NCBI GenBank assembly: GCA_039566865.1
Contig: CM076944.1
Location: forward strand, 16,886,501-16,950,500
DNA length: 64,000 nt
Source of the DNA: Aurelia coerulea
Taxonomy: Eukaryota > Cnidaria > Scyphozoa > Semaeostomeae > Ulmaridae
Reading direction: 5' to 3'
The position numbers were made by a program, and so were the translations under genes. This document shows, one piece after another, positions 28,289 through 54,026 of the stretch (the first letter of the stretch is position 1; each line of letters begins with the position of its first letter). Under the pieces are notes generated by a model. The model was not told where the DNA came from and made no database searches. It was given only the letters and a program-made list of their open reading frames with translations.

Positions 28289-28659
28289 AATCCTAATCCT
28301 TATTTGAATCATAAATAAAAAAGACAAGATGAAATCAAATCATAGATTGAAAGCCGAGACGAAAGCTTAAACAAAATGACAAACGGAAATCCTAATTCGA
28401 AATGGGAATGTGACACCCAACACCAAATCTAAAGCAAGATGAAATCCAAATGTAAACAGAAATCCCAATACGAAATAAATAAAAAATTAAAATGTGCAAG
28501 ACGAAATCAAAATCTAAAATGAAATGAAAAGTTAAATCATAAATGTAAGGCGAAAACTGTCTGCTTCAAATCTTGGTGGATGATATGTTGGGAGTCCCTC
28601 GTGCGCACAGTACATATTTGAAAGAAAAGTCTCGTTTCCATGTTCAAATGGCCATTTGC

Positions 28660-28755
28660 AGAGCGAAATCAGTCATGCCCTAAGTGAAATCGCTCATGCG
28701 CTAAGTGAAATCGCTCATGCGCTAAGTGAAATCGCTCATGCGCTAAGTGAAAAAC
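28660..28755 (+). repeat. 21-bp tandem repeat within the left arm
   Basis: The unit gctaagtgaaatcgctcatgc occurs about three full times plus diverged edges. The opposite arm (about 29810-29870) has one unit fewer, so the copy number changed after the arms formed. Confidence 0.85.
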
Positions 28756-30172
28756 AAATCGAGCGCGCATTGTAGCGCGCTTATAAGAATAGCAGTAGGC
28801 CCAGAGTCGCGCTAAGCGTTCGGCTCAGTTCCCAACGACAGCAGGCGTGCTTTTGTCACAAGCACGTGTCAAGAGGGAAGTTTTGAAGTTTGCACCTTTG
28901 ACTTCCCTCAAGAAATGTTTAGACTCTGTCTTTAAGGGAAGAAACTTTCGCAGGAAGAAACTTTCAGGAGTTATGGGAAGTTTATAGGGAATAAACGTGC
29001 GGGGATAAGGTTCTTATCAAATTTTTGAATGTCTCAAATTCAGTTCGGTTCAGTATTAGAAACGCTACAAAACAAGTACCCAAATAATGTCAAAACAGTT
29101 GCTCTTTGAACAATTTTCAACTTAGGAAGTGTAGTTTCTGAAGGTTTGAAAAGTTGGGGCAACTATTCCTTGTAAGATTTTTCTTATAAAACATTGGGTG
29201 CACTCTACCTCCTCTTTATTCCTCTCAAAGCTTTTTGAAAAAAATCAGGTCCGGGCTGGCAGATAGTTTCTTGAAATTTGGGGCAAGTTTGATACCAAAA
29301 GTTTCTTATGTGTTAATGCAAAAAGACCAATTCTTTTATGTCCCGAAGGTGCCTATATTTAGAACATGTATCGACAAAATGTGTAGTAAAAAAATAAGTG
29401 GATTTGAAGTTCATGACCATATCCTTCTTTCCTTCTTTCTGAAGTTGAAGTCAAATTTGTCAATGGAAACTTTTTGGAGTTTGCTGAAATGAATGCAATC
29501 TTTACTTTAGTTTTCAAGTTGTGAGCCAGGAAAAATAAAAACTGCAAATTACAAAAATTTCTCAACTTTTCAAATTCAGGTTGAGCTTTTTCCGAAATTT
29601 AACAAAATTGAATCTACCATCATCATAGTAATAATGAAATCATGATCATGAACATCATTATCAAAGCAATGCCCGATCCCGATGCGATGCTCTCCTTGAA
29701 TTAGCCACCAACCTAGCCTGCGCGCAGACTCTAACACCAACTGAGCTGAAGACTCAGCAGTGCGACTGTGGGCCTACTGCTATTCTTATAAGCGCGCTCG
29801 ATTTGTTTTTCACTTAGCGCATGAGCGATTTCACTTAGCGCATGAGCGATTTCACTTAGGGCATGACTGATTTCGCTCTGCAAATGGCCATTTGAACATG
29901 GAAACGAGACTTTTCTTTCAAACATGTACTGTGCGCACGAGGGACTCCCAACATATCATCCACCAAGATTTGAAGCAGACAGTTTTCGCCTTACATTTAT
30001 GATTTAACTTTTCATTTCATTTTAGATTTTGATTTCGTCTTGCACATTTTAATTTTTTATTTATTTCGTATTGGGATTTCTGATTACATTTGGATTTCAT
30101 CTTGCTTTAGATTTGGTGTTGGGTGTCACATTCCCATTTCGAATTAGGATTTCCGTTTGTCATTTTGTTTAA

Positions 30173-43482: not shown

Positions 43483-45752
43483 TTATGATTTATAGTTGTC
43501 GGGGTGGTTAAGTTTATTGTTCAGTCCTTTAGGGGAAAGAGTCTGCAGTCGTTTAATCCAGCTGTCTTCGTGTGTTTCTAATAAATGTGTCATATTTTGG
43601 ACGTTTTCTTTTTCGATCTTCTCGATTATTATGAATCTTGCGTCTCTTTCGAAGACGTGATTTTGCTCTTTGAAATGTTTTTCTACCGGAAGGAGCTTGT
43701 CGTATTGCGCTGATTTTACACGAGAACGGTAATTATTAAGTCTGTAGTTGAAAGGCCATTCTGATTTGCCGACATATTGTTTCTTACAGCGGGTGCATTC
43801 AAGGAGATATATTACGTTCATGCTTTTGCAGTTAGATTCGTGAAAGATTTTATAGGTTTTGTGGGTATTTACGCTAGTAAATGAATTAGTTTTAATGACA
43901 TGGTTGCAGCATAGGCTTCTTTTGGTATTACATGGTGAGCAGTATTTAATTGTTCTTTTGTTGGCTTTTTTTCTTTTAACTTTGTTATTGATGATAGTGT
44001 TGCTGCCAATTATTTCTCTCAGGTTCTTGCATCGACGAAATGCAATTATCGGAGGTTCCGAGTAGAGTTTCTTGAGTTTGGGCTTTATGTTTAAAATATC
44101 CCATCTTTCTTTCAAGATTTTACCAATTTGGGGCAGTGTAGAATTAAAGGTAGTGACTAGGGGGATTCTTGTGGATCGCTTCTTTGAAACTTTCCTTAAT
44201 GTCGTGTCTCTTGGGGTTATGATGGCTTTACCGATTTGTTCTTGGAGATTCTCTTTATGATATCCTCGTCGGAGAAAATTTTCTTCCATTTTTTTGCAGT
44301 TGCTACCTAGTTGGTCATCTTTTGTGCATATCCTTCTAAGTCTAAGAGCTTGTGAATAGGGTAAACTGTTCTTAAGATGTCTGGGGTGGGCTGATTTATA
44401 GTGTAGGTAGTTGTGTGTGTCAGTTGGTTTGGTGAATAGAGTTGTTTGTAGTTGTCTGTTGTCGTCTATATAGATACAGGTGTCTAGGAAAGGGATTGAT
44501 GTTTTTGAAATTTCATAGTCGAACTTTATTGATGGGTGTTTTGTGTTGAGTTGCTCAGCGAACGTCTTGAATTCTCTTTCGCTGCCTTTGTAGATTAAAA
44601 GGATGTCGTCTATGTACCTGCCATAGTATAGGCAGTCTTTACCTATTGTGGGGTAGATGTGTTTTTCTTCAAATTCACCCATGTATATAACAGCGTAAGA
44701 GGGTGCTGCAACGGTGCCCATGGCACACCCTCTTGTCTGTAGGTAGCTATTTCCGTTGAATGTGAAGCAATTGAGCGTGAGGACATGTCTCATCATTGTT
44801 AATAAAGCATCAGTTGCTGGTTCTTTATTGGCTCTCTTGTTTAAAGCATTTTTAAGGGCTAGTAGGCCATCCTCGTGGCGTATGTTTGTGTAGAGGGATC
44901 TTACATCTAAGGTTACGAGCAATGCATTCATGGGTATTTTACCAATAGTTTTTATTTTGTTTAACAAATCTGTAGTGTCGCGGATGTATGATCGCACTTT
45001 TTGTGCAAGGGGTTGGATATAATGATCGACGTATTTAGATATTTTGGTTGTGTGGCAGTTTGTCGACGCCACAACTGGGCGGCCTGGATTGTTCTTTTTA
45101 TGAATTTTCGGTAGTAGATAAAATCTAGCCGGTTTAACTTCTTTAGGAACCTTTAAAATCTCCAATGCTTCTGCATCAATTTTATCTTGAGTGTACATTT
45201 CATCTAACGAGTTGTTTATTATTCTTATGTACCCATGAAATGGGTCAAATGCCAATTTTTTATAGAATGCTGTATTATTTAGTTGGTTGTTGGCTTCCGT
45301 GAGGTATTCTTCAATACCCCAGATAACGGTTGCCCCTCCTTTGTCGGCTCGCGTTATTACGATGTCCTCTCTTTCCGATAGATTCCTTAGCGCATTAATT
45401 TCACCTTTCGTAAGGTTGTTTGATCGCAGCGCCTGTTTATCGTGGTTTTTAATGTCTTCAATGACTGCAGACTCAAATGTCTGAATGGTAGTGTCTACGT
45501 TTTGCGGTGTAAATGAACTATTTCTTTCTTTCAGTTGTTGTAAAATTGTAGGATTGTATTCAGAAATTCCGAAGTGTGCTCTTAGTCTTATTCGTCTAAA
45601 GAAGGCCTTAAGGTCCTTATCAAATTCGGTAGTGTTATATCTAGGGGGTCGGGGGCAGAAATTCAAACTTTTATCTAATAAACTAAATACGTGTGTAGAA
45701 AAAGTGTGTTTACTTAAGTTTAAGATTCGTCCATTTGGGTCATTTTTAAATC
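43483..45752 (-). CDS. PLE E1 ORF2: reverse transcriptase with C-terminal GIY-YIG nuclease
   Basis: A 727-codon frame from 45666 (TTG) that is open upstream in the same phase to the end of ORF1. The first ATG is about 155 codons into the recognisable protein, past conserved sequence (LNFCPRPP, ITRADKGGATVIW), so initiation at an ATG is unlikely. The RT has LDVRSLYTNI, CAMGTVAAPSYA and catalytic YIDDILLIY. A Cys-rich CxxC...CC linker precedes the GIY-YIG domain (VIYLLECTRC, QYVGKSEWPFNYR), with the late Glu (THEDSW) and Asn (GLNNKLN) present. PLEs use this nuclease for target-primed insertion. The start given includes the -1 frame extension into ORF1. Confidence 0.9.
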
Positions 45753-46982
45753 TACAAGTCTCTCGAAGTTTCTTTGCAGTAGAGCGAAAGCTTCTTGCGT
45801 GTTTGTTAGCAGATCTTGAAGGCCCCCGTCCATGTCTGTCCGGGGGCTGGAACGGTTTTTTTGAAATGTCTTCGTTCTTTCTTGATCGGTGGTGTTCCTG
45901 CTTGGTATGTGAGGTGGTCTTCGGGTGTTCTTCGGTTGGAGGATTTCAGCATAGGTGCGGGTCTGCGTGTCATGTTGTCTGCGTGGTTGTTCTTTAGGAG
46001 TCGCCGACTCATCGCCGTCTGTGGGTCGTTGCTGTTGTCCGCTAAACCTTAACGGGGGGGTAGCGTGTTTGCGGTTTCCTGCAGTTTGTTGTCTGTATGT
46101 AGGTGGTGGTGGTTGGTGTTGTTGTTGTTGTCGTTGTTGTTGTTGTCGTGGTGGTTGCAGTGATGGTTGTTGTTGTTGTTGCTGTTGTGGTTGATGTGGT
46201 TGTTGATGTTGTTGTTTTCTCTGTCCGTTGCTGATGTTCCACCGGAGTTTGCGGTGTTTCGCTCTTTTGGTCTTTTGTAGTTCCTGTTTCTTTTCTTGAC
46301 TGTAGTTGTTTATAACTAACTTTATTTCATTGTATTCATCAGCTGGTGTTGTTGCTTTTAGCGCTCGGTCTAGTGACTTGGCTTCTGTCTCGGCCTTCGC
46401 CATCGTTTCATTGCAGAAGTTGACTGTGTCAGTCATGAGTTCAAGTGAGAACTTCTCGACCTTTGCATACCACGAAGACAGGAATTGGTCGTCATGGTTA
46501 CCAATGGATGGTTCAATTTCAATCCTGAAGTTCCAGGGGATGATCCTGTCTCGAATGCAGGTGGTTAGGAAATCACGGTGTGATTCAAAGCGGGCAAACT
46601 TCTCGGTCTGGCGGCTGAGCTTGATTGCCTGCAGTTCCTTATCATCATTAAGTATATCGATAGTGGTTAAGATACTGGAGTTGCTTACCGATGAATCACC
46701 GTCCGGTGTGTCAGTGGTGCGGGCATTAGCCCCTCTAGGTACTGTGTCCAGTGTGCCAGTGTTGCGGGTGCTAGCCAATCTTGGGTCGGTATCCAGTCTG
46801 TCAGTGTTGAGGGCATTGGCCCCTCTTGGCTCGGTGTCAAGTGTGTCTGTGCTACGGGCGTCAGCCCCTCTTGGTTCGGTGTCCATTGTGCCAGTGTTGC
46901 GGCCGTTTGACCCTATGGCTTCGACTTCCGGTGTGTCAGTGTTGCGGGCGCCAGCCCCTCTTGCTCCACGTCTTCCAGTCAT
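45720..46982 (-). CDS. PLE E1 ORF1: putative structural/nucleic-acid-binding protein
   Basis: ATG at 46982 lies at the edge of the terminal repeat. About 420 residues. N-terminal: near-perfect 20-residue repeats (pattern GADARSTDTLDTEPR) spanning about 90 residues. Middle: a helical conserved-looking domain (RFESHRDFLTTCIRDRIIPW to RAKHRKLRW). Then a Gln/His/Pro-rich stretch. The C-terminus LQRNFERLVDLKMTQMDES has heptad spacing. I know no enzymatic motif. The C-terminal segment is conserved in E2 (48018-48126), so it belongs to the element. ORF1 ends 54 bp before the first listed codon of ORF2 but overlaps its open frame. Confidence 0.8.
   Translation of the reverse strand: MTGRRGARGAGARNTDTPEVEAIGSNGRNTGTMDTEPRGADARSTDTLDTEPRGANALNTDRLDTDPRLASTRNTGTLDTVPRGANARTTDTPDGDSSVSNSSILTTIDILNDDKELQAIKLSRQTEKFARFESHRDFLTTCIRDRIIPWNFRIEIEPSIGNHDDQFLSSWYAKVEKFSLELMTDTVNFCNETMAKAETEAKSLDRALKATTPADEYNEIKLVINNYSQEKKQELQKTKRAKHRKLRWNISNGQRKQQHQQPHQPQQQQQQQPSLQPPRQQQQRQQQQHQPPPPTYRQQTAGNRKHATPPLRFSGQQQRPTDGDESATPKEQPRRQHDTQTRTYAEILQPKNTRRPPHIPSRNTTDQERTKTFQKNRSSPRTDMDGGLQDLLTNTQEAFALLQRNFERLVDLKMTQMDES
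46703..46966 (-). repeat. 60-bp coding minisatellite in PLE ORF1
   Basis: Four to five tandem units of 60 bp, each encoding about 20 residues. The unit length is a multiple of three, so copy-number change keeps the frame. Confidence 0.8.
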
Positions 46983-46986
46983 AATA

Positions 46987-47080
46987 TAAGATGTACACAA
47001 AAATAGAGACGATTTGAAGTTCTTTAATTCTTTTATTTCATTCTTCTACTCTCGACGCGTTTCGACTCTGTGGTCGATAT
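46987..47080 (-). repeat. PLE E1 upstream terminal repeat, truncated
   Basis: Matches 43156-43258 from gatgtacacaaaaatagag to gactctgtggtc, then breaks into a TA tract before the CUGACGA half, so its hammerhead is incomplete. Confidence 0.8.
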
Positions 47081-47095
47081 ATATATATATATATA

Positions 47096-48005
47096 GTGTA
47101 TCACTGTAATATATATCACTATATATATATAGTGAACGATGAAGAAGAGGGACAACATCCTCAGAGAGCAGGCATCGAGTTGATTTTGCGCTTTTTTTCA
47201 TTTATTCAGCTATCTACTAACTAGTTTCGTCCACTAGGGCATCTTCAGAGCAACTGATTAAGTTAAAGTATTGACCTCTATTTATAGTAAAATGTATGTC
47301 CATATAAGGTTAATCAATTTACAAGTGTCATTTTGTCCTTATAAGGTAAAATGTTCTTGTCATATGCTGTTTCTGTTGTTAGCCTCGTTCTCATTGTTTT
47401 TCAGTTGAGTCGTTGTCGTTGTAGGGGTCGGATCTCGTGTCCTGGTGTTGTATTTTCGTGCTTTGTCTTTTGACGTCAGATCTTCTTTCATCGTTCTTCG
47501 AGCGTCACTTTTCCAATTTTGTTTACGGTGCTTCTTTGCCAGTGGCTGATTCCCTGAATCTTAACCCACCTCGGGTGTACTTTTACCCTGTTCATTCAGT
47601 TCGGTTCGGTTCTTTTCTTTGGCGTTGTTCGCAGTGCGATGTTGTCTTTTCGATGTGCTGTTGTTACGGGGTTCTGTTTCCTTCGACGTCAGTGTGTAGT
47701 TCGTAGTCAGATATTTTCCCTGTGTTATATTGTTGTTGTTGTTGTTGTTGTTGTTGTTATTGTTGCTTGACGTATGTAGTTATGTAGTTTGATTTCGCGT
47801 CAGGTTGATTTCGTTGTTTTCTGTATTGTTGCTGTTGCTGTTGCTATTGTTGTTGCTGTTGTTGTTGTTGTTGCTTGACGTATGTCGTTTGATTCCACGT
47901 CAGATTGTTGAGTTGCTGCTCGCGGTCGCGAGTTTGTTTGTGTTGTTGTCTTCGATCTGTTTCGTAGATTCTTTTATATATATATATCTTTTATATATAA
48001 TATAA
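47096..48005 (-). mobile_element. Fragment of a second PLE type: terminal repeat plus CAA-rich region
   Basis: 47130-47256 contains a terminal-repeat-like sequence with a hammerhead motif on the minus strand. 47700-47960 has duplicated (TTG)n tracts that read as poly-Gln on the minus strand with a shared flank (ttgcttgacgtatgt), resembling the Q-rich part of a PLE ORF1. The frame is broken. Plus-strand ORFs here are incidental. Confidence 0.5.
47207..47256 (-). ncRNA. Hammerhead-like motif, second PLE type
   Basis: On the minus strand: CUGAAGA, extra U, stem II GCCC/GGAC (one mismatch), GAAA, palindrome ACUAGU. Stem I pairs GCU with AGU next to the core, and CAGUU with AGCUG beyond a 4-nt bulge. 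The sequence just 3' of this repeat recurs, without the hammerhead, at 51349-51430. Confidence 0.55.
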
Positions 48006-48017
48006 TATCTAGATCTG

Positions 48018-48126
48018 TAGTAGATCAAGATCTGCTTACCACCACAATGCAAGCTTTCGAACTTTTGAAAAACAACTTCGAAAGACTCATAGACTTAAAG
48101 ATGACCCAGATGGACGAATAATTAAT
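48018..48126 (+). pseudogene. PLE E2 ORF1 remnant
   Basis: Encodes QDLL, then AFELLKNNFERLIDLKMTQMDE and a TAA. It aligns with the E1 ORF1 C-terminus. The rest of ORF1 is absent. The -1 frame is open from here into ORF2, as in E1. Confidence 0.75.
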
Positions 48127-48162
48127 TTAAGCAAAAATAAATTTACTGTAGATGTATTTAAA

Positions 48163-50370
48163 TTGTTAAGTAAAGGCCTCAACTTCTGCCCCCGCCCACC
48201 ACATTTTGATAAACACACATTAGAAAACGACTTAAAATCATTTTTTAGAAGAATAAGATTAAGAGCCTATTTTGGAATATCCAAGTATGAACCAACCATT
48301 TTACAATCACTCAAAGAAAGAAACACTTCATTTACGCCAAAAAACATAGATACAACTATCCAAACGTTTGAAATTGCAGTCAAAGAGGACATTAAAAACC
48401 ACGAAAAACGAAACTTACCACATGATAACCTGACAAAAAAGCAACGTGAAGCCCTCAAGACACTCACAGAAAGAGATGACTTAGTCATAACTAGAGCCGA
48501 TAAAGGTGGAGCAATAGTTATCTGGGGTATCGAAGAGTACCTCCTAGAGGCCAATAGCCAACTAAACAACACAGAATTTTACCAAGAACTCACAGTTGAC
48601 CCCTTTGAAGATTACCAGAAAATAATAATAAACTCACTTAACGAAATGCTTTCAAATAATATCATTGACAAAGAAACATCGGATATGCTAAAACCAACAA
48701 ATGTCAAACCTGCTCGCTTCTATTTACTTCCAAAAATACACAAAAAGAACAACCCTGGACGGCCAGTAATTTCCTCAGTTAACTGCCACACCACTAAATT
48801 ATCAAAATACGTTGATAATTTCATACAGCCCCTTGCTAAGAAAGTTAATTCCTATATACGAGATACAACAGACCTCATAAACAAAATAAAGCACATCAAA
48901 AGAATACCACATAACGCAATGCTAGTTACAATGGACGTCAGGTCCTTATACTCAAACATAAAGCACAACGACGGAATATCAGCCCTAAAAGAATGCCTTG
49001 ATAACAGAGTATCAAAAGAACCACCTACAGAAGTAATAGCAACTCTAATGAACCACATATTAACACTAAACAACTTCAACTTTAATGGAAGACATTTTCT
49101 CCAAATAAAAGGTTGTGCCATGGGCACTGTAGCAGCTCCATCATATGCCACCATTTATATGGGACATTTTGAAGAAACCCACATCTATCCAGAAATTAAC
49201 AATGATTGCCTCTTTTACGCCAGATACATTGACGACATTTTCCTTATATACACAGGTGGTGAAACAAAACTCGATGAATTTCTGACAAACCTTAATACGA
49301 AACATGATTCCATTAAATTTGACCACGAAAAATCAACACAATCAGTCGCATTTTTGGACACCTTAATATACATTGATGAAAACAGACAATTACAAACAAC
49401 GCTTTACACAAAACCTACAGATACCCACAACTATCTACATTTTAAATCTTCCCACCCTAAACATCTTAAAGAAAGCCTACCCTACTCCCAAGCCCTAAGA
49501 CTACGAAGGATCTGCTCTGATAATAACGAATTGAATAAACACAGTGACAAATTAAAACAACAATTCATAGCACGTGGCTACTCTCCAACTTTAGTTGATA
49601 ACCAGATAAAAAAAGCTATTGATATCCTAAGAAAAGATACCCTAAAATTAACAAATAACGAGAAATCTAATCGTATCCCCCTTGTAACAACATTCAACAA
49701 TACCCTACCCCCAATGGCCCAAATAATCCAGAAACGCTGGGACATTTTAAAACTAAAACCAAATTTAAAAGAAATTTTCCAAGAACCTGGTATGATAGCC
49801 TATCGTCGACCAAGGAACCTTAAAGAAATGATAGGAAGCAACAATATTTCGAATAACAAGGTTACCCGTACGAAACCAATTACAAAAACTGTTAAATTTT
49901 GCCAACCATGTAATATTAAAAACAGCCTATGCTGCAATCATCTCAAATCTACTAACTCATTCACGAGCTGAGTTTCAACTAATGTAACTAAAACAACCTA
50001 TAAAATCTACCACGAATCTAACTGCAAAAGCAGAAACGTCATATACCTATTAGAATGCACACTTTGCTCTAAACAATATGTCGGAAAATCTGAATGGCCC
50101 TTCAACTTTAGACTCAACAACTATAGGCACAGAATCAAATCAACAGACTATGATAAACTACTCCCTGTCGAACAACACTTTCGCTTATCAAACCACGACT
50201 TTGCCAGAGATGCTAAATTTACAATCATAGAAAAAATTGAAAAGAACGTATCGGATGAAATTACGTCGATACTAGAATCACATGAAGACAACTGGATATT
50301 ACGTCTTAGAACTCTCGCCCCAAATAGCCTAAACGGCAAGCTTAACCACCCAGAAAATATAAGACTATAG
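48163..50370 (+). pseudogene. PLE E2 ORF2: RT plus GIY-YIG with one nonsense codon
   Basis: RT motifs match E1: LNFCPRPP, ITRADKGGA, MDVRSLYSNI, CAMGTVAAPSYA and catalytic YIDDIFLIY. A TGA at 49969-49971 falls at the Cys-rich linker just before the nuclease, and the same frame continues with NVIYLLECTLCSKQYVGKSE through to a TAG at 50368-50370. The recognisable frame begins with TTG and has no ATG for over 150 codons. A single inactivating change makes it a young pseudogene. Confidence 0.9.
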
Positions 50371-50533
50371 ATCTTTAAACAGATGGACAGGCAACAGAAT
50401 TACGTTCATTTTTTTGTTATTACATTGTTCCCCTGTGACCTGTCACTTTCTTAATCATACATAATTTGAAACAACTAATTTAACGTCACATTTATAAAAA
50501 GAATTTATAAAACTGTTGTATTAGAAAGTATAA

Positions 50534-50582
50534 CTCATTCTCCTGATGATGACCACACGGTCGAAACTAGTTGGGAATTGAG
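50534..50582 (+). ncRNA. Hammerhead-like motif, PLE E2 3' region
   Basis: Best-formed example. Stem I CUCAUUCUC (50534-50542) pairs with GGGAA (50573-50577) and UGAG (50579-50582) across a one-base bulge. The core is CUGAUGA (50543-50549), then one extra U, stem II GACC/GGUC with loop ACAC, and GAAA (50563-50566). Stem III is the palindrome ACUAGU followed by U, so cleavage is predicted after 50572. Same orientation as E2. Confidence 0.7.
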
Positions 50583-50857
50583 AAAGAATTTATATATATT
50601 TATTCCTGCTCGTCTTTATTTTTGTTCATCTTTAATATAATATCTATATATATATATATAGAATCATTCGGCATAAGCTGACACGGTGAAATATATTTAT
50701 CATGAGTGGGCTACCACAATTCGAGAATTAAAATGTGCCCCTGCCTGGGATCGAAATGTGCCCCTGCCTGGTCTTCGTGTCAAAAGTTTCTCCAACATTC
50801 CACAGCGCCACTCAAGCGCAATGAAATGTTGGAGAAATCTGAAGACATTCAGATCCC

Positions 50858-50930
50858 TGGGTCTTACACCACGACAGAAGCCATTTTTTGTTTTTTCGTG
50901 TTTCGGCATTAAGCCTTCATCAGAGCCATG
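50858..50930 (-). ncRNA. Hammerhead-like motif, tandem unit 1
   Basis: On the minus strand: stem I GGCU pairs with AG(A)CC; core CUGAUGA (50917-50923), extra A, stem II GGC/GCC with loop UUAAU, GAAA (50901-50904). Stem III is ACAC with GUGU closing a ~28-nt loop. The triplet GUA precedes the predicted cut at 50865/50864. Confidence 0.6.
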
Positions 50931-51142
50931 CATACGTATATAGAATCATTCGGCATAAGCTGACACGGTGAAATATATTCATCATGAGTGGGCTACCACA
51001 ATTTGAGAATTAAAATGTGCCCCTATCTGGGATCGAAATGTGCCCCTGCCTGGTCTTTGTGTCAAAAGTTTCTCCAACATTCCACAGCGCCACTCAAGCG
51101 CAATGAAATGTTGGAGAAATCTGAAGACATTCAGATCCCTGG

Positions 51143-51220
51143 GTCTTACACCACGACAGAAGCCATTTTTTGTTTTTTGTTTTTGCGTGTTTCGGCATTA
51201 AGCCTTCATCAGAGCCATGC
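51143..51220 (-). ncRNA. Hammerhead-like motif, tandem unit 2
   Basis: Same elements as unit 1: CUGAUGA at 51206-51212 and GAAA at 51190-51193. The stem III loop is longer owing to an expanded T-rich run. The predicted cut is after the GUA at 51147-51149. Confidence 0.6.
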
Positions 51221-51342
51221 ATACGTATATAGAATCATTCGGCATAAGCTGACACGGTGAAATATATTTATCATGAGTGGGCTACCACAATTCGAGAATT
51301 AAAATGTGCCCCTATCTGGGATCGAACCCGGGGTCTTCATAT

Positions 51343-51440
51343 ATATATATAAAGCGAATGATGAGAAGAAGAGGGACAACATCCACAGAGAGCAGGCATC
51401 GAGTTGATCTTTTCCCTTTTTTATTCAGTTATATATATAT
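51343..51440 (-). repeat. Terminal-repeat fragment of the second PLE type, between TA tracts
   Basis: 51355-51430 is close to 47130-47200 (agaagagggacaacatcc, agagagcaggcatcgagttg). It lacks the hammerhead half. (TA)n tracts lie on both sides. Confidence 0.7.
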
Positions 51441-51456
51441 ATGTAGTCAAGAAAAA

Positions 51457-51505
51457 CACATTCGAGTAAACGTTTCGGCGTAAGCCTTCATCAGTAATAA
51501 CTTTC
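51457..51505 (-). ncRNA. Hammerhead-like motif, PLE F 3' region
   Basis: On the minus strand: CUGAUGA, extra A, stem II GGC/GCC with loop UUAC, GAAA, then the palindrome AACGUU. Stem I is weak. It lies 3' of the PLE F ORF in the same orientation. Confidence 0.5.
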
Positions 51506-51857
51506 CAAATTAGACGGAGAATACATATAGATCCTGAAATAACAATACAAAACAATAGCCTAAGCGGGATCCTGATTAATACAATAAGTCATAAAAGGTG
51601 TAAAATAGGGGTGTAGCCAAAGGCAGCAACAGGAAGATCAAAGAAAGCGCAGATTAAAGAGCTGCTAAAGTCGGCGGCGGTGTCTGTCTCGCGGAAGCCA
51701 GAAAAAGAAAACGTGTGTACTAACAAAACAAGCTATAGAAAGATCCAAGAGCGGATTGGCAGAAAAGAGATCCCTACAAAACAGCGTGTGTCCCTTATGA
51801 AAAGCTTAACGCAAAAATCAAAACAAAAAAACAACCAAAATGTAAACAAAAATCAAA

Positions 51858-52460
51858 TTATGTATCAACCTGCCTAGTTTTTAATCCCTTAGGGGCAAAG
51901 CAATCCAGCCGATATTGCCAGAAGCTTTCCCACATCCTATTTCCCCCCGTTAGCCTATCGATTATCTTTATACTAATATCCTTCAGAAACCCGTGGTGGC
52001 CTTCTCCAGTAAAATGCCTGAAGAATTCCGCTTGGGGTACTGAGGCCCCCGAATTAATCTTATGACTGCACGCCTTGTAATTGTTAAACCCAAGCCTAAA
52101 AGGCGTGCAGGTGCTACCAACATATTGCACACCACAAACAGTACATTCCAACAAATACACAACATTCGACGAGTGACAATTAAACGAATAGTTTATCCTA
52201 TATTCCCGGCTATCTATGTTTAAATGAAAATGTCCACTATTACTCATGACATTACACACTTGACAACGAGATTTACCACAACGAGAACATCCCTTCTTAT
52301 CAGTCCCCCCATTTCCCTCACTACTGAGCCTAGCCCTACCAAGTATATCCTTAAGGTTCTTACATCTCCTAAATGCTATTAAAGGTGGCTCAGGAAACAC
52401 CGCCCTATGCTCCTCCGAGTTTGTGAGCATAGAATTGAGTCTCCTGGCAACCTTCCCCAA
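51858..52460 (-). pseudogene. PLE F: Cys-rich linker and GIY-YIG nuclease, 5'-truncated
   Basis: A 200-residue frame starting past the RT: PPLIAFRRCKNLKDIL, a CxxC...CxxC linker (CSRCGKSRCQVC), and GIY-YIG motifs VVYLLECTVC and QYVGSTCTPFR, with WESFWQYR near the end. It resembles E1/E2 but is a different family. No RT catalytic core. The fragment is embedded between 282-bp repeat units. Confidence 0.8.
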
Positions 52461-52517
52461 ACTAATGAGTGCTGGATGGTACGTGGCAACAAGTGGAACC
52501 GCATCCTAATATATATA

Positions 52518-52843
52518 GAATCATTCGGCATCAGCTGACACGGTGAAATATATTTATCATGAGTGGGCCACCACAATTCGAGAATTAAAATGTGCCCCTG
52601 CCTGGGATCGAATGCTTCCCAGTCTTCGTGTCAAAAGTTTCTCCAACATTCCACTGCGCCACTCAAGCGCAATGAAATGTTGGAGAAATCTGAAGTCATT
52701 CAGATTCCTGGGTCTTACACCACGACAGAAGCCATTTTTTGTTTTTTCGTGTTTCGGCATTAAGCCTTCATCAGAGCCATGCATACGTATATAGAATCAT
52801 TCGGCATCAGCTGACACGGTGAAATATATTTATCATGAGTGGT
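52518..52843 (-). repeat. Second locus of the 282-bp hammerhead/tRNA-like repeat
   Basis: One full unit (52518-52793) and the start of another (52794-52843), same orientation as the array at 50661. The hammerhead lies at about 52710-52790. PLE F and a terminal-repeat fragment lie between the two loci, so the array may have been split by insertion. Confidence 0.7.
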
Positions 52844-52859
52844 TATATATATATATTAA

Positions 52860-53535
52860 ATATAGATATAGATATAGATAAATATAGATATATGTTAAAA
52901 CGAAAAAGATACAGTGCGCAAGTGTGATATATGTTAAAACGAAGGAGAAGGCGTAAACAAAAGACAACTCGTTTCTTTTGCGACTAGTTTCATCTGTTCA
53001 TGCAGACTCTTCGGGCTAAATGATTACTTTTACTGCAGCTCTTAATTTGTACAAAGTCCGTCTATTCATATGACGTAAGATTATTTCATTCCCCTTGATG
53101 TCAAATGTTAGTTTGTATCTAACTTTGCTTTTCTTTTTAATTGGTACATGAATTTGTGATTTGAGTTTAGTATTAATAGTCTCCTCATTAGGTTTGTTTG
53201 TTCTAGTTGCATTGCTGCTAATTCTAGAATTAGGTACATAATTACAAGAGAATTGTTCAGCCCTAAAATTGCTATTGCGAAGTTTAAGCTCGATTTTATA
53301 TATTTCTGTTCCGACTTTCTTCAATCTTGATTTCGTCCTGTCATGCAGGACTTCTTCAGGGCTGTGAAGAAGTCCTGCATGGCAGGACGAAATATTGGCA
53401 AAAAATAAATTAATCATATTTGCTGTTGTTTTTGGTCGTATTGCGGTGTTTCTGCCTTTAAATTTATATGTGTATTTTTCTCGCTTCTTTGCCTTTGAAA
53501 GTATTTTGAGTGGAATCCTCGTGTTCTTTTTCATA
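52860..53535 (-). mobile_element. Degraded element with two hammerhead-like motifs
   Basis: An ORF at 53016-53534 is probably not a gene: it runs through the inverted repeat at 53330-53393. On the minus strand 53331-53359 reads CUGAAGA, extra A, a perfect 6-bp stem II GUCCUG/CAGGAC, GAAA. At about 52978-53012 a mutated version (CCGAAGA, stem GUCUG/CAGAU, GAAA, palindrome ACUAGU, C) is seen. Flanked by TA-rich sequence. Likely another PLE-type terminal repeat. Confidence 0.5.
53331..53393. repeat. Hairpin formed by inverted copies of the hammerhead half-site
   Basis: The sequence atttcgtcctg...aggacttcttca is followed immediately by its inverted copy (tgaagaagtcct...caggacgaaat), so both strands carry CUGA...GAAA-like halves. 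Possibly a head-to-head duplication of a PLE terminal repeat. Confidence 0.6.
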
Positions 53536-53725
53536 TATATATAGATTTGTACTTTAAAGCTTTAAAGTTGGAATTTATGAGCTAACTACTTTTAGCTATC
53601 TTTTTATTGCAATCCAACGATAAAGAAATTGATGATGACTTTTATAATCGAAAGTATTTAAGTTAGCTCGTATACTTTTGGAGCTGACGCCGCATAGATA
53701 TATCAAAAGCAATAACAACGAAATA

Positions 53726-54026
53726 CCACAGGGACCCCAGGAAATTGAATAATGCCCTTCCCCAATGATAAATCCCCGTAGCCTCCTTTGTGATTGCGAA
53801 GCTATGACGTAATGCCTTTCATCAGAAATCGAAAGTGAGGCGAAAGGAGGGGCCACATGGCATTGTTTTTCAGTGCAGAATTGAAAAGAACTGACGTAAT
53901 GCAGCTGGATGCGCCTCGCTTTCGATTTCTGGGTAAAGGCATCACGTCATAGCTTCGCAATCGCAAATGAGTCTACGGGGCTTTATCATTTGGGGGGCGT
54001 TATTCAATTTCCTGGGGTCCCTGTGG
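53726..54026. mobile_element. ~300-bp MITE with ~110-bp inverted ends
   Basis: Ends read ccacagggaccccagg and its inverse. The arms share attgcgaagctatgacgt and cagaaatcgaaag. Non-coding. The target duplication is unclear. It lies in the presumed intron downstream of the MnSOD exon. Confidence 0.75.

What the first reader, a model, noticed from the sequence alone, without database searches (positions are those of the whole stretch)
50661..52843. Tandem 282-bp repeat combining a hammerhead-like ribozyme with tRNA-like promoter boxes
Three full units at two loci share CUGAUGA, stem II and GAAA, a GUA cleavage triplet with stem III ACAC/GUGU, and stem I pairing. The A-box-like TGGCGCTGTGG and a B box (canonical in one partial unit, GGGTT CGATCCC) are on the same strand. 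Predicted cuts in adjacent units are 282 nt apart, so a transcript across the array would be cut to unit-length RNA. Schistosome SMalpha and metazoan retrozymes are known cases of similar logic. The link to PLE-type motifs here looks unusual.
Basis: partly seen in the sequence, partly recalled or inferred. Interest (0 to 1): 0.87.

Follow-up and report, generated by a model that had tools for sequence, protein, structure and literature searches.

The report
Ribozyme-carrying SINE that parasitises Penelope elements
A short non-coding jumping element, present in hundreds of copies in this probably animal genome, carries a tRNA-like head and a predicted self-cutting RNA, and a clear excess of its copies begin exactly at the predicted cut point, which suggests that the RNA really cuts itself in the living organism.

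Summary
The tandem repeat is real and is a dispersed mobile family, not a local satellite. The genome (574 Mb) holds 439 copies of the ribozyme core with at most 1 mismatch (reversed control 0). The usual unit is 273 bp, not 282. Both a canonical A box and B box occur in 56 of 68 distinct units. The better reading is a type III hammerhead, GUGUC^AGCUGAUGC...GCAUGGCU-CUGAUGA-A-GGC..GCC-GAA-ACACG, noted before 5' ends were tabulated. Eight of 56 array 5' ends fall exactly on that cut (0.2 expected, P=3.9e-11); 7 of 47 without arrays already printed by then. The type I cut gets 1 of 56. Array 3' ends cluster at two AT tracts beside the ribozyme. Arrays lie mostly in AT-rich sites, sometimes head to head, and one is fused to a Penelope tail, as expected if Penelope-like elements move them. 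Against: no Rfam hammerhead hit at E<=10, TTTT runs argue against long Pol III transcripts, no RNA data. Closest kind: metazoan non-LTR retrozymes and SMalpha. New here: type III topology, tRNA boxes and a Penelope-like core in one element.

The parts
50657..51338 (-). Retrozyme/SINE array 1: 5'-truncated unit plus two full units (2.5 units)
52514..52842 (-). Retrozyme/SINE array 2: 5'-truncated unit plus one full unit (1.2 units)
51186..51256 (-). Type III hammerhead 1 (stem III CGUGU/ACACG, stem I AGC/GCU + AUGC/GCAU, stem II GGC/GCC); predicted cut between 51251 and 51250
   Evidence: 37 C minimum-energy fold of the isolated motif, not kept in longer context; positions
50897..50967 (-). Type III hammerhead 2; predicted cut between 50962 and 50961
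   Evidence: not the minimum-energy fold in longer context
52748..52818 (-). Type III hammerhead 3; predicted cut between 52813 and 52812
   Evidence: also the minimum-energy fold in longer context
50676..50684 (-). Orphan cut site GTGTC^AGCT at the 3' end of array 1 (no core downstream)
52533..52541 (-). Orphan cut site GTGTC^AGCT at the 3' end of array 2
50800..50810 (-). A-box-like TGGCGCTGTGG
51082..51092 (-). A-box-like TGGCGCTGTGG
52651..52661 (-). A box TGGCGCAGTGG (the common genome form)
51318..51328 (-). Canonical B box GGTTCGATCCC in the truncated unit
50747..50755 (-). Degenerate B box TTCGATCCC beside a locally duplicated segment
51029..51037 (-). Degenerate B box TTCGATCCC beside a locally duplicated segment
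52604..52612 (-). Degenerate B box TTCGATCCC
51437..52505 (-). 5'-truncated Penelope-like element: C-terminal ORF (51858-52505) and 3' UTR, a high-copy family; candidate helper family
51473..51494 (-). Minimal PLE hammerhead core CTGATGAAGGCTTACGCCGAAA; 24-column match of 91.7% to the unit core

Best explanation
The repeat is a non-autonomous retrotransposon of the metazoan retrozyme kind: a tRNA-derived SINE body joined to a PLE-type hammerhead core arranged as a type III hammerhead. Model: (1) transcripts spanning two or more units are made, promoter uncertain; (2) each unit's hammerhead folds and cuts after GUC, giving RNAs that begin AGCUGAUGCC (structure predicted by folding, activity inferred); (3) the reverse transcriptase and GIY-YIG endonuclease of a resident PLE bind the hammerhead region, open AT-rich DNA, and prime cDNA at one of two AU tracts, one 11 nt before the cut and one in the apical loop of stem I (3' ends shown, enzyme inferred); (4) cDNA stops at the ribozyme-made 5' end or earlier, giving copies that start exactly at the cut or are 5'-truncated (5' ends shown, cause inferred); (5) multi-unit inserts arise from uncut multimers, end-to-end jumps or circular RNA, and later unequal exchange (inferred); (6) priming from both DNA strands leaves head-to-head inverted pairs (pairs shown, cause inferred; PMC3846280 explains such pairs in Penelope by self-priming instead).
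For: Type III site written in the notebook, before 5' ends were tabulated; one search had already printed six stretches with arrays, one holding one of the eight ends below. Refined 5' ends: 8 of 56 exactly at +1 (P=3.9e-11) and 12 of 56 within 2 nt (expected 1.0). The eight upstream flanks are all different. Positions only, partly overlapping loci, duplicates not removed: 24 of 42 array-first cores lack the exact GTGTC-AGCTG junction, against 6 of 46 inner cores (Fisher P=1.5e-5). Fold: the three window motifs are type III hammerheads at minimum energy at 37 C; chance 0.00025 by shuffling, 0.0024 in windows drawn from the fetched segments. 3' ends: 19 of 57 arrays at unit position 262 and 23 of 57 at 23-26. 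TSD-like repeats of 8-18 bp in 7 of 30 solitary arrays after setting a nested case aside (control 8 of 193 at >=8). Twelve head-to-head array pairs with gap or overlap of 5 nt or less and no tail-to-tail pair that close (my reading); among 69 PLE pieces 6 head-to-head and 1 tail-to-tail. An array at C6:11466474 is fused to a PLE tail ending in an AT tract. Published PLE behaviour matches: AT-rich cutting, both strands extended, internal RT initiation (PMC11167929); mostly head-to-head inverted copies and 8-10 bp TSDs (PMC3846280, passages).
Against: No Rfam hammerhead hit at E<=10 on a typical copy or a window copy, though Rfam also misses the PLE cores of the same stretch. One extra nucleotide sits between A9 and stem II. 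The 68 distinct units are too alike for covariation: one compensatory change, CG to TA at 268-65. In longer context the two window copies with AGCTT have another minimum-energy fold, and the other common AT variant does not give the full hammerhead as minimum energy at 25 C even alone. The loci were chosen by similarity to the window sequence, and 7 ends were dropped before the count. Some loci share flanks (C11:12058984 and C14:19280830), so not every insertion is surely independent. No RNA data. Only one chimeric PLE junction was seen, and many arrays sit in (TA)n tracts next to old PLE copies, so nested insertion could mimic a link. PLE hammerhead mutants still insert in vitro (PMC11167929).
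Confidence: 0.7

Rival explanations
1. One reading: a type I hammerhead with stem III ACAC/GUGU over a 26-33 nt A-rich loop, cutting after GUA^AGACC.
For: Drawable in all three window units. Its pairs are kept in 64-68 of 68 distinct units. Type I is the usual topology in animal retrozymes (PMC7229834). Its +1 position does have one array end.
Against: Chance completion 1.5-3.6%. Stem III pairing probability <=0.08 and stem I about 0. 1 of 56 array ends at its +1, P=0.19.
Confidence: 0.05
2. The 5'-end hotspot is a transcription start (initiator-like TC|AGCT), not a ribozyme cut; the hammerhead core is then only a PLE recognition tag or a relic.
For: TCAGCT resembles an initiator with A at +1 (recalled). 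A PLE pLTR with TATA and Inr-like motifs is described in PMC3846280. PLE hammerhead mutants still insert in vitro (PMC11167929).
Against: The site was predicted from structure. None of the eight exact junctions is preceded by a G that a cap might leave (sequences). The AT tract lies only 12-17 nt upstream of +1, short for a TATA box.
Confidence: 0.15
3. Inert satellite: arrays spread by unequal exchange and by slippage or exchange in (TA)n tracts, with no active ribozyme or retrotransposition.
For: Some arrays are homogeneous and long, e.g. 12-13 units. Many sit in (TA)n.
Against: Arrays seen on 17 contigs, TSD-like repeats, fixed 3' ends, a 5' hotspot, and one-unit inserts outside (TA)n such as C6:14921836.
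Confidence: 0.06
4. A conventional Pol III SINE moved by an ordinary LINE, which picked up a PLE tail by chance.
For: Canonical A and B boxes 44 nt apart start to start. LINE ORFs occur in the window.
Against: AT-tract 3' ends, head-to-head pairs and the hammerhead core match PLEs. TTTT runs lie between the boxes and right after the B box. Shared 3' tails with a LINE were not searched for.
Confidence: 0.04

Closest known systems
Metazoan non-LTR retrozymes (Cervera and de la Pena 2020, PMC7229834)
   Same: Tandem units of 150-450 bp from dimers to long multimers, low GC, hammerhead in each unit, non-coding, strongly self-paired predicted RNA, longer TSDs, coexistence with PLEs.
   Different: [quoted passage not shown] later abstracts do report a promoter in a plant retrozyme LTR). 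Here the hammerhead reads as type III with a PLE-like core, and the unit has A and B boxes.
SMalpha SINE-like family of schistosomes
   Same: Hammerhead plus SINE-like unit (PMC8490949, passages); Pol III boxes there are recalled, not read in a call.
   Different: SMalpha has a type I hammerhead; no sequence relation tested.
Minimal hammerheads of Penelope-like elements
   Same: Core CTGATGAAGGCTTA.GCCGAAAC nearly identical to the local PLE, with the same extra nucleotide before stem II.
   Different: PLE motifs have almost no stem III and are reported to work as dimers (as cited in PMC7761336). Here a 5-bp stem III closes from the 5' side.
Plant LTR retrozymes (PMC4918200, passages; PMC7229834)
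   Same: Type III hammerhead in a non-autonomous retroelement.
   Different: Plant elements have LTRs, PBS and PPT, circles of 600-800 nt, and are linked to Gypsy elements.

Membership tests
Metazoan non-LTR retrozyme | Tandem non-coding units of about 150-450 bp, dimers to multimers | tested here: met
   273-bp median unit; arrays from fragments to 13 units
Metazoan non-LTR retrozyme | GC below about 45-50% | tested here: met
   44.2% over 108 units
Metazoan non-LTR retrozyme | Canonical type I hammerhead | tested here: not met
   Type III reading favoured
Metazoan non-LTR retrozyme | No LTR, PBS or PPT; TSDs longer than 4 bp when present | tested here: inconclusive
   TSD-like 8-18 bp in 7 of 30 solitary arrays; LTR, PBS and PPT not searched for formally
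Metazoan non-LTR retrozyme | Abundant circular RNA and self-cleavage in vitro | not testable with these tools
   No RNA data
Metazoan non-LTR retrozyme | Host is an animal | not tested
   Genome unnamed; an animal-only family search (Wnt) did not complete; animal host is inferred from the retroelement set
Hammerhead ribozyme (any type) | Core CUGANGA...GAA(A) with three helices and NUH cleavage triplet | tested here: met
   one extra nucleotide before stem II
Hammerhead ribozyme (any type) | Match to curated Rfam hammerhead models | tested here: not met
   No hit at E<=10; PLE cores in the same stretch are missed too
tRNA-derived SINE | A box and B box at tRNA spacing | tested here: met
   56 of 68 distinct units; no tRNA called by ARAGORN
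tRNA-derived SINE | Pol III transcription of the whole unit | not testable with these tools
   TTTT between boxes in 57 of 68 and after the B box in 62 of 68 argue against it
Penelope-like element | RT and GIY-YIG ORF | tested here: not met
   Every frame of the unit is stopped at least once per unit
Penelope-like element | AT-rich targets, tandem or head-to-head copies | tested here: met
   behaviour per PMC11167929, PMC3846280

The most novel reading that the evidence does not exclude
A class of SINE that lives off Penelope-like elements by copying their hammerhead and re-permuting it into a self-sufficient type III ribozyme. The ribozyme has two jobs: its cut makes the 5' end of the mobile RNA, and its stem I loop displays the AU tract on which the Penelope reverse transcriptase starts.
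Probability: 0.4. Interest if true: 0.75.

Novelty: new variant of a known kind. Interest (0 to 1): 0.62.

Why it matters
[quoted passage not shown] Here one family shows 5' ends that fit ribozyme cleavage in the genome record, two fixed priming tracts beside the ribozyme, and PLE-like insertion geometry. That makes both questions testable with one short RNA and one purified PLE protein.

Tried and rejected
Type I hammerhead: rejected. Rfam: no hammerhead at the settings used; the snoRNA and miRNA matches are below gathering scores and were treated as chance. ARAGORN: no tRNA in the window or in a doubled unit. Covariation across units: too little divergence. Pattern of the core in viral contigs: 0. 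Genome-wide count of AGCTGATGCCGAATGATT, to separate true 5' ends from mutated junctions, did not complete. The count of PLE pieces ending at one position (58 of 64) is set by the end of my query and is not used; only 25 of those 64 had TATATATA at or after the 3' end, which is weaker than the AT preference of the arrays might suggest.

Papers: PMC7229834 parts 1-4 of 6 and PMC11167929 parts 1-2 of 4 read; PMC7761336, PMC4918200, PMC3846280, PMC8490949, PMC6155905 only passages found by terms; others only search listings. Cervera 2014 and Lunse 2017 are not held and are known only as cited or recalled. Searches (open-licence PMC only) listed no paper that I recognised as describing an animal retrozyme with a type III hammerhead and A/B boxes; I did not read all listed papers.

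Full report
What is there. The window lies in a 574-Mb genome of 294 contigs, not named by the tools. The neighbourhood holds LINE ORFs with RVT_1 and endonuclease domains and PLE-like ORFs with RVT_1; that the host is an animal is my inference, and a Wnt search meant to test it did not complete. The finding covers two insertions on the minus strand: 50657-51338 (2.5 units) and 52514-52842 (1.2 units), either side of a 5'-truncated PLE (51437-52505) that is itself high-copy. The GIY-YIG match of the PLE ORF 43483-45945 is weak (PF01541 E=0.0098, below cut-off); ORF 48013-49971 and the 215-aa fragment have none. Their identity as PLEs rests on RVT_1 in the two long ORFs, on my reading of the sequence, and on the pLTR-like repeats of the copy at 47075-42995.

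Copies elsewhere. Searching the genome with one unit gave 522 candidate stretches, of which 39 were scored, with 214 matches. The ribozyme core occurs 439 times with at most one mismatch and the reversed control 0 times; GTGTCAGCTGATGCCGAATGATT occurs 432 times exactly, control 0. From 44 fetched segments (212 kb) I extracted 108 full units, 68 distinct, median 273 bp, 44.2% GC. A box TGGCGCAGTGG is in 62 of 68, B box GGTTCGATCCC in 58, both in order in 56. The window copies are an odd branch: 282-289 bp spacing in array 1 and a damaged B box in each full unit.

Which ribozyme. The core is almost the same as that of the neighbouring PLE (91.7% over 24 columns). Shuffling gives a type III completion this good in 0.025% of cases (0.24% in windows from the fetched segments), against 1.5-3.6% for the type I completion. 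The three window motifs fold to the type III hammerhead at 37 C when folded alone. With about 40 more nucleotides downstream only the AGCTG copy (52774) keeps it; the two AGCTT copies prefer another fold. The other common AT variant (U2) does not give the full hammerhead as minimum energy at 25 C. Type I stems have low to zero probability. The full type III motif in exact form is in 52 of 68 distinct units.

A test in the genome. If the cut is real, copies of cleaved RNA should begin at AGCTGATGCC. Ends were refined by local alignment to a tripled unit, so the chosen phase cannot create them. The first set has 57 arrays. I dropped 7 (three overlapping or hairpin calls at C2:11.78M, two diverged fragments at C20:8.70M, one at a locus end, one in a TA run) and added 6 ends from later loci (L071, L072, L073, two in L074, L076); of the two arrays in L075, one shares its flank with C1:17103297 and one is cut by the locus end, so neither was added. 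That makes 56. Eight are exactly at +1, 11 within 1 nt, 12 within 2 nt. Of the six later ends 2 are at +1. Independently of letters, 24 of 42 array-first cores lack the exact GTGTC junction against 6 of 46 inner cores; some of these loci overlap the first set, some look like duplicates of each other, and absence can also mean mutation.

3' ends and targets. Of 57 arrays 19 end at unit position 262 and 23 at positions 23-26. Both are AU tracts: 11 nt before the cut, and in the apical loop of stem I. Because the targets are mostly TA-rich, the exact joint is ambiguous by a few nucleotides. Seven of 30 solitary arrays have TSD-like repeats of 8-18 bp (an eighth, at C1:17103297, is a nested case); the control has 8 of 193. 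By my reading, twelve pairs of arrays meet head to head with at most 5 nt gap or overlap, none tail to tail. Among 69 PLE pieces in the same segments there are 6 head-to-head and 1 tail-to-tail junctions. One array is fused to a PLE hammerhead tail that ends in an AT tract (C6:11466474). These are marks reported for Penelope elements: AT-rich cutting with both strands extended and internal initiation (PMC11167929), and mostly head-to-head inverted copies with 8-10 bp TSDs, which that paper explains by self-priming (PMC3846280).

How it probably works, and what is not shown. Cleavage, 5' ends and priming tracts fit one cycle run by PLE proteins. Not shown: catalysis, the RNA species, the promoter, the helper enzyme. 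Pol III would meet TTTT between the boxes and again after the B box, so the tRNA part may be ancestry, a short transcript, or a protein-binding fold rather than the promoter of long RNA. Whether multi-unit inserts come from uncut RNA, circles, or template jumps is open; long homogeneous arrays such as C4:17779720 suggest later expansion.

Place among known things. It works like a metazoan non-LTR retrozyme, but two stated features differ: topology (type III instead of type I) and the presence of tRNA boxes, where a review says retrozymes seem to lack promoters. It resembles SMalpha in combining a SINE with a hammerhead. I file it as a new variant of a known kind.

Noticed in passing
window 47075-42995 (-): A PLE with RT ORF 43483-45945, a second ORF 45720-47045, a 5' partial repeat (47075-46981) and two 3' tandem repeats (43256-43140, 43111-42995) each holding a minimal hammerhead CTGACGATGACCACAGAGTCGAAACGCGTC: pLTR architecture.
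   Followed up: partly
window 48013-50566 (+): Another PLE with RVT_1 ORF and a downstream minimal hammerhead CTGATGATGACCACACGGTCGAAACTAGTT at 50543.
   Followed up: partly
window 50543, 51494, 43250, 43105, 53359: These five PLE-type hammerhead cores all have one extra nucleotide between A9 and stem II (my reading); Rfam models did not report them (at gathering scores; at E<=10 for the three inside 49500-54000).
   Followed up: partly
G000 C4:11649232-11650627: Ribozyme cores alternate in orientation with a 685-bp period, suggesting a tandem of head-to-head inverted units (positions).
   Followed up: no
window 28439-30100: Inverted repeats of 293 nt, 99% complementary, 1076 nt apart, with 21-bp subrepeats: looks like a DNA transposon.
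   Followed up: no
window 53322-53397: Strong hairpin with a decayed hammerhead-like core; weak match to mir-2513 (39.8 bits, gathering score 89).
   Followed up: no
window 53760-53994: Inverted repeat, arms 113 nt, 79% complementary, 9 nt apart.
   Followed up: no
window 51341-51436 and 47120-47197: A short segment beside the array recurs upstream of the other PLE (88.9% over 81 nt) and at several genome loci.
   Followed up: no
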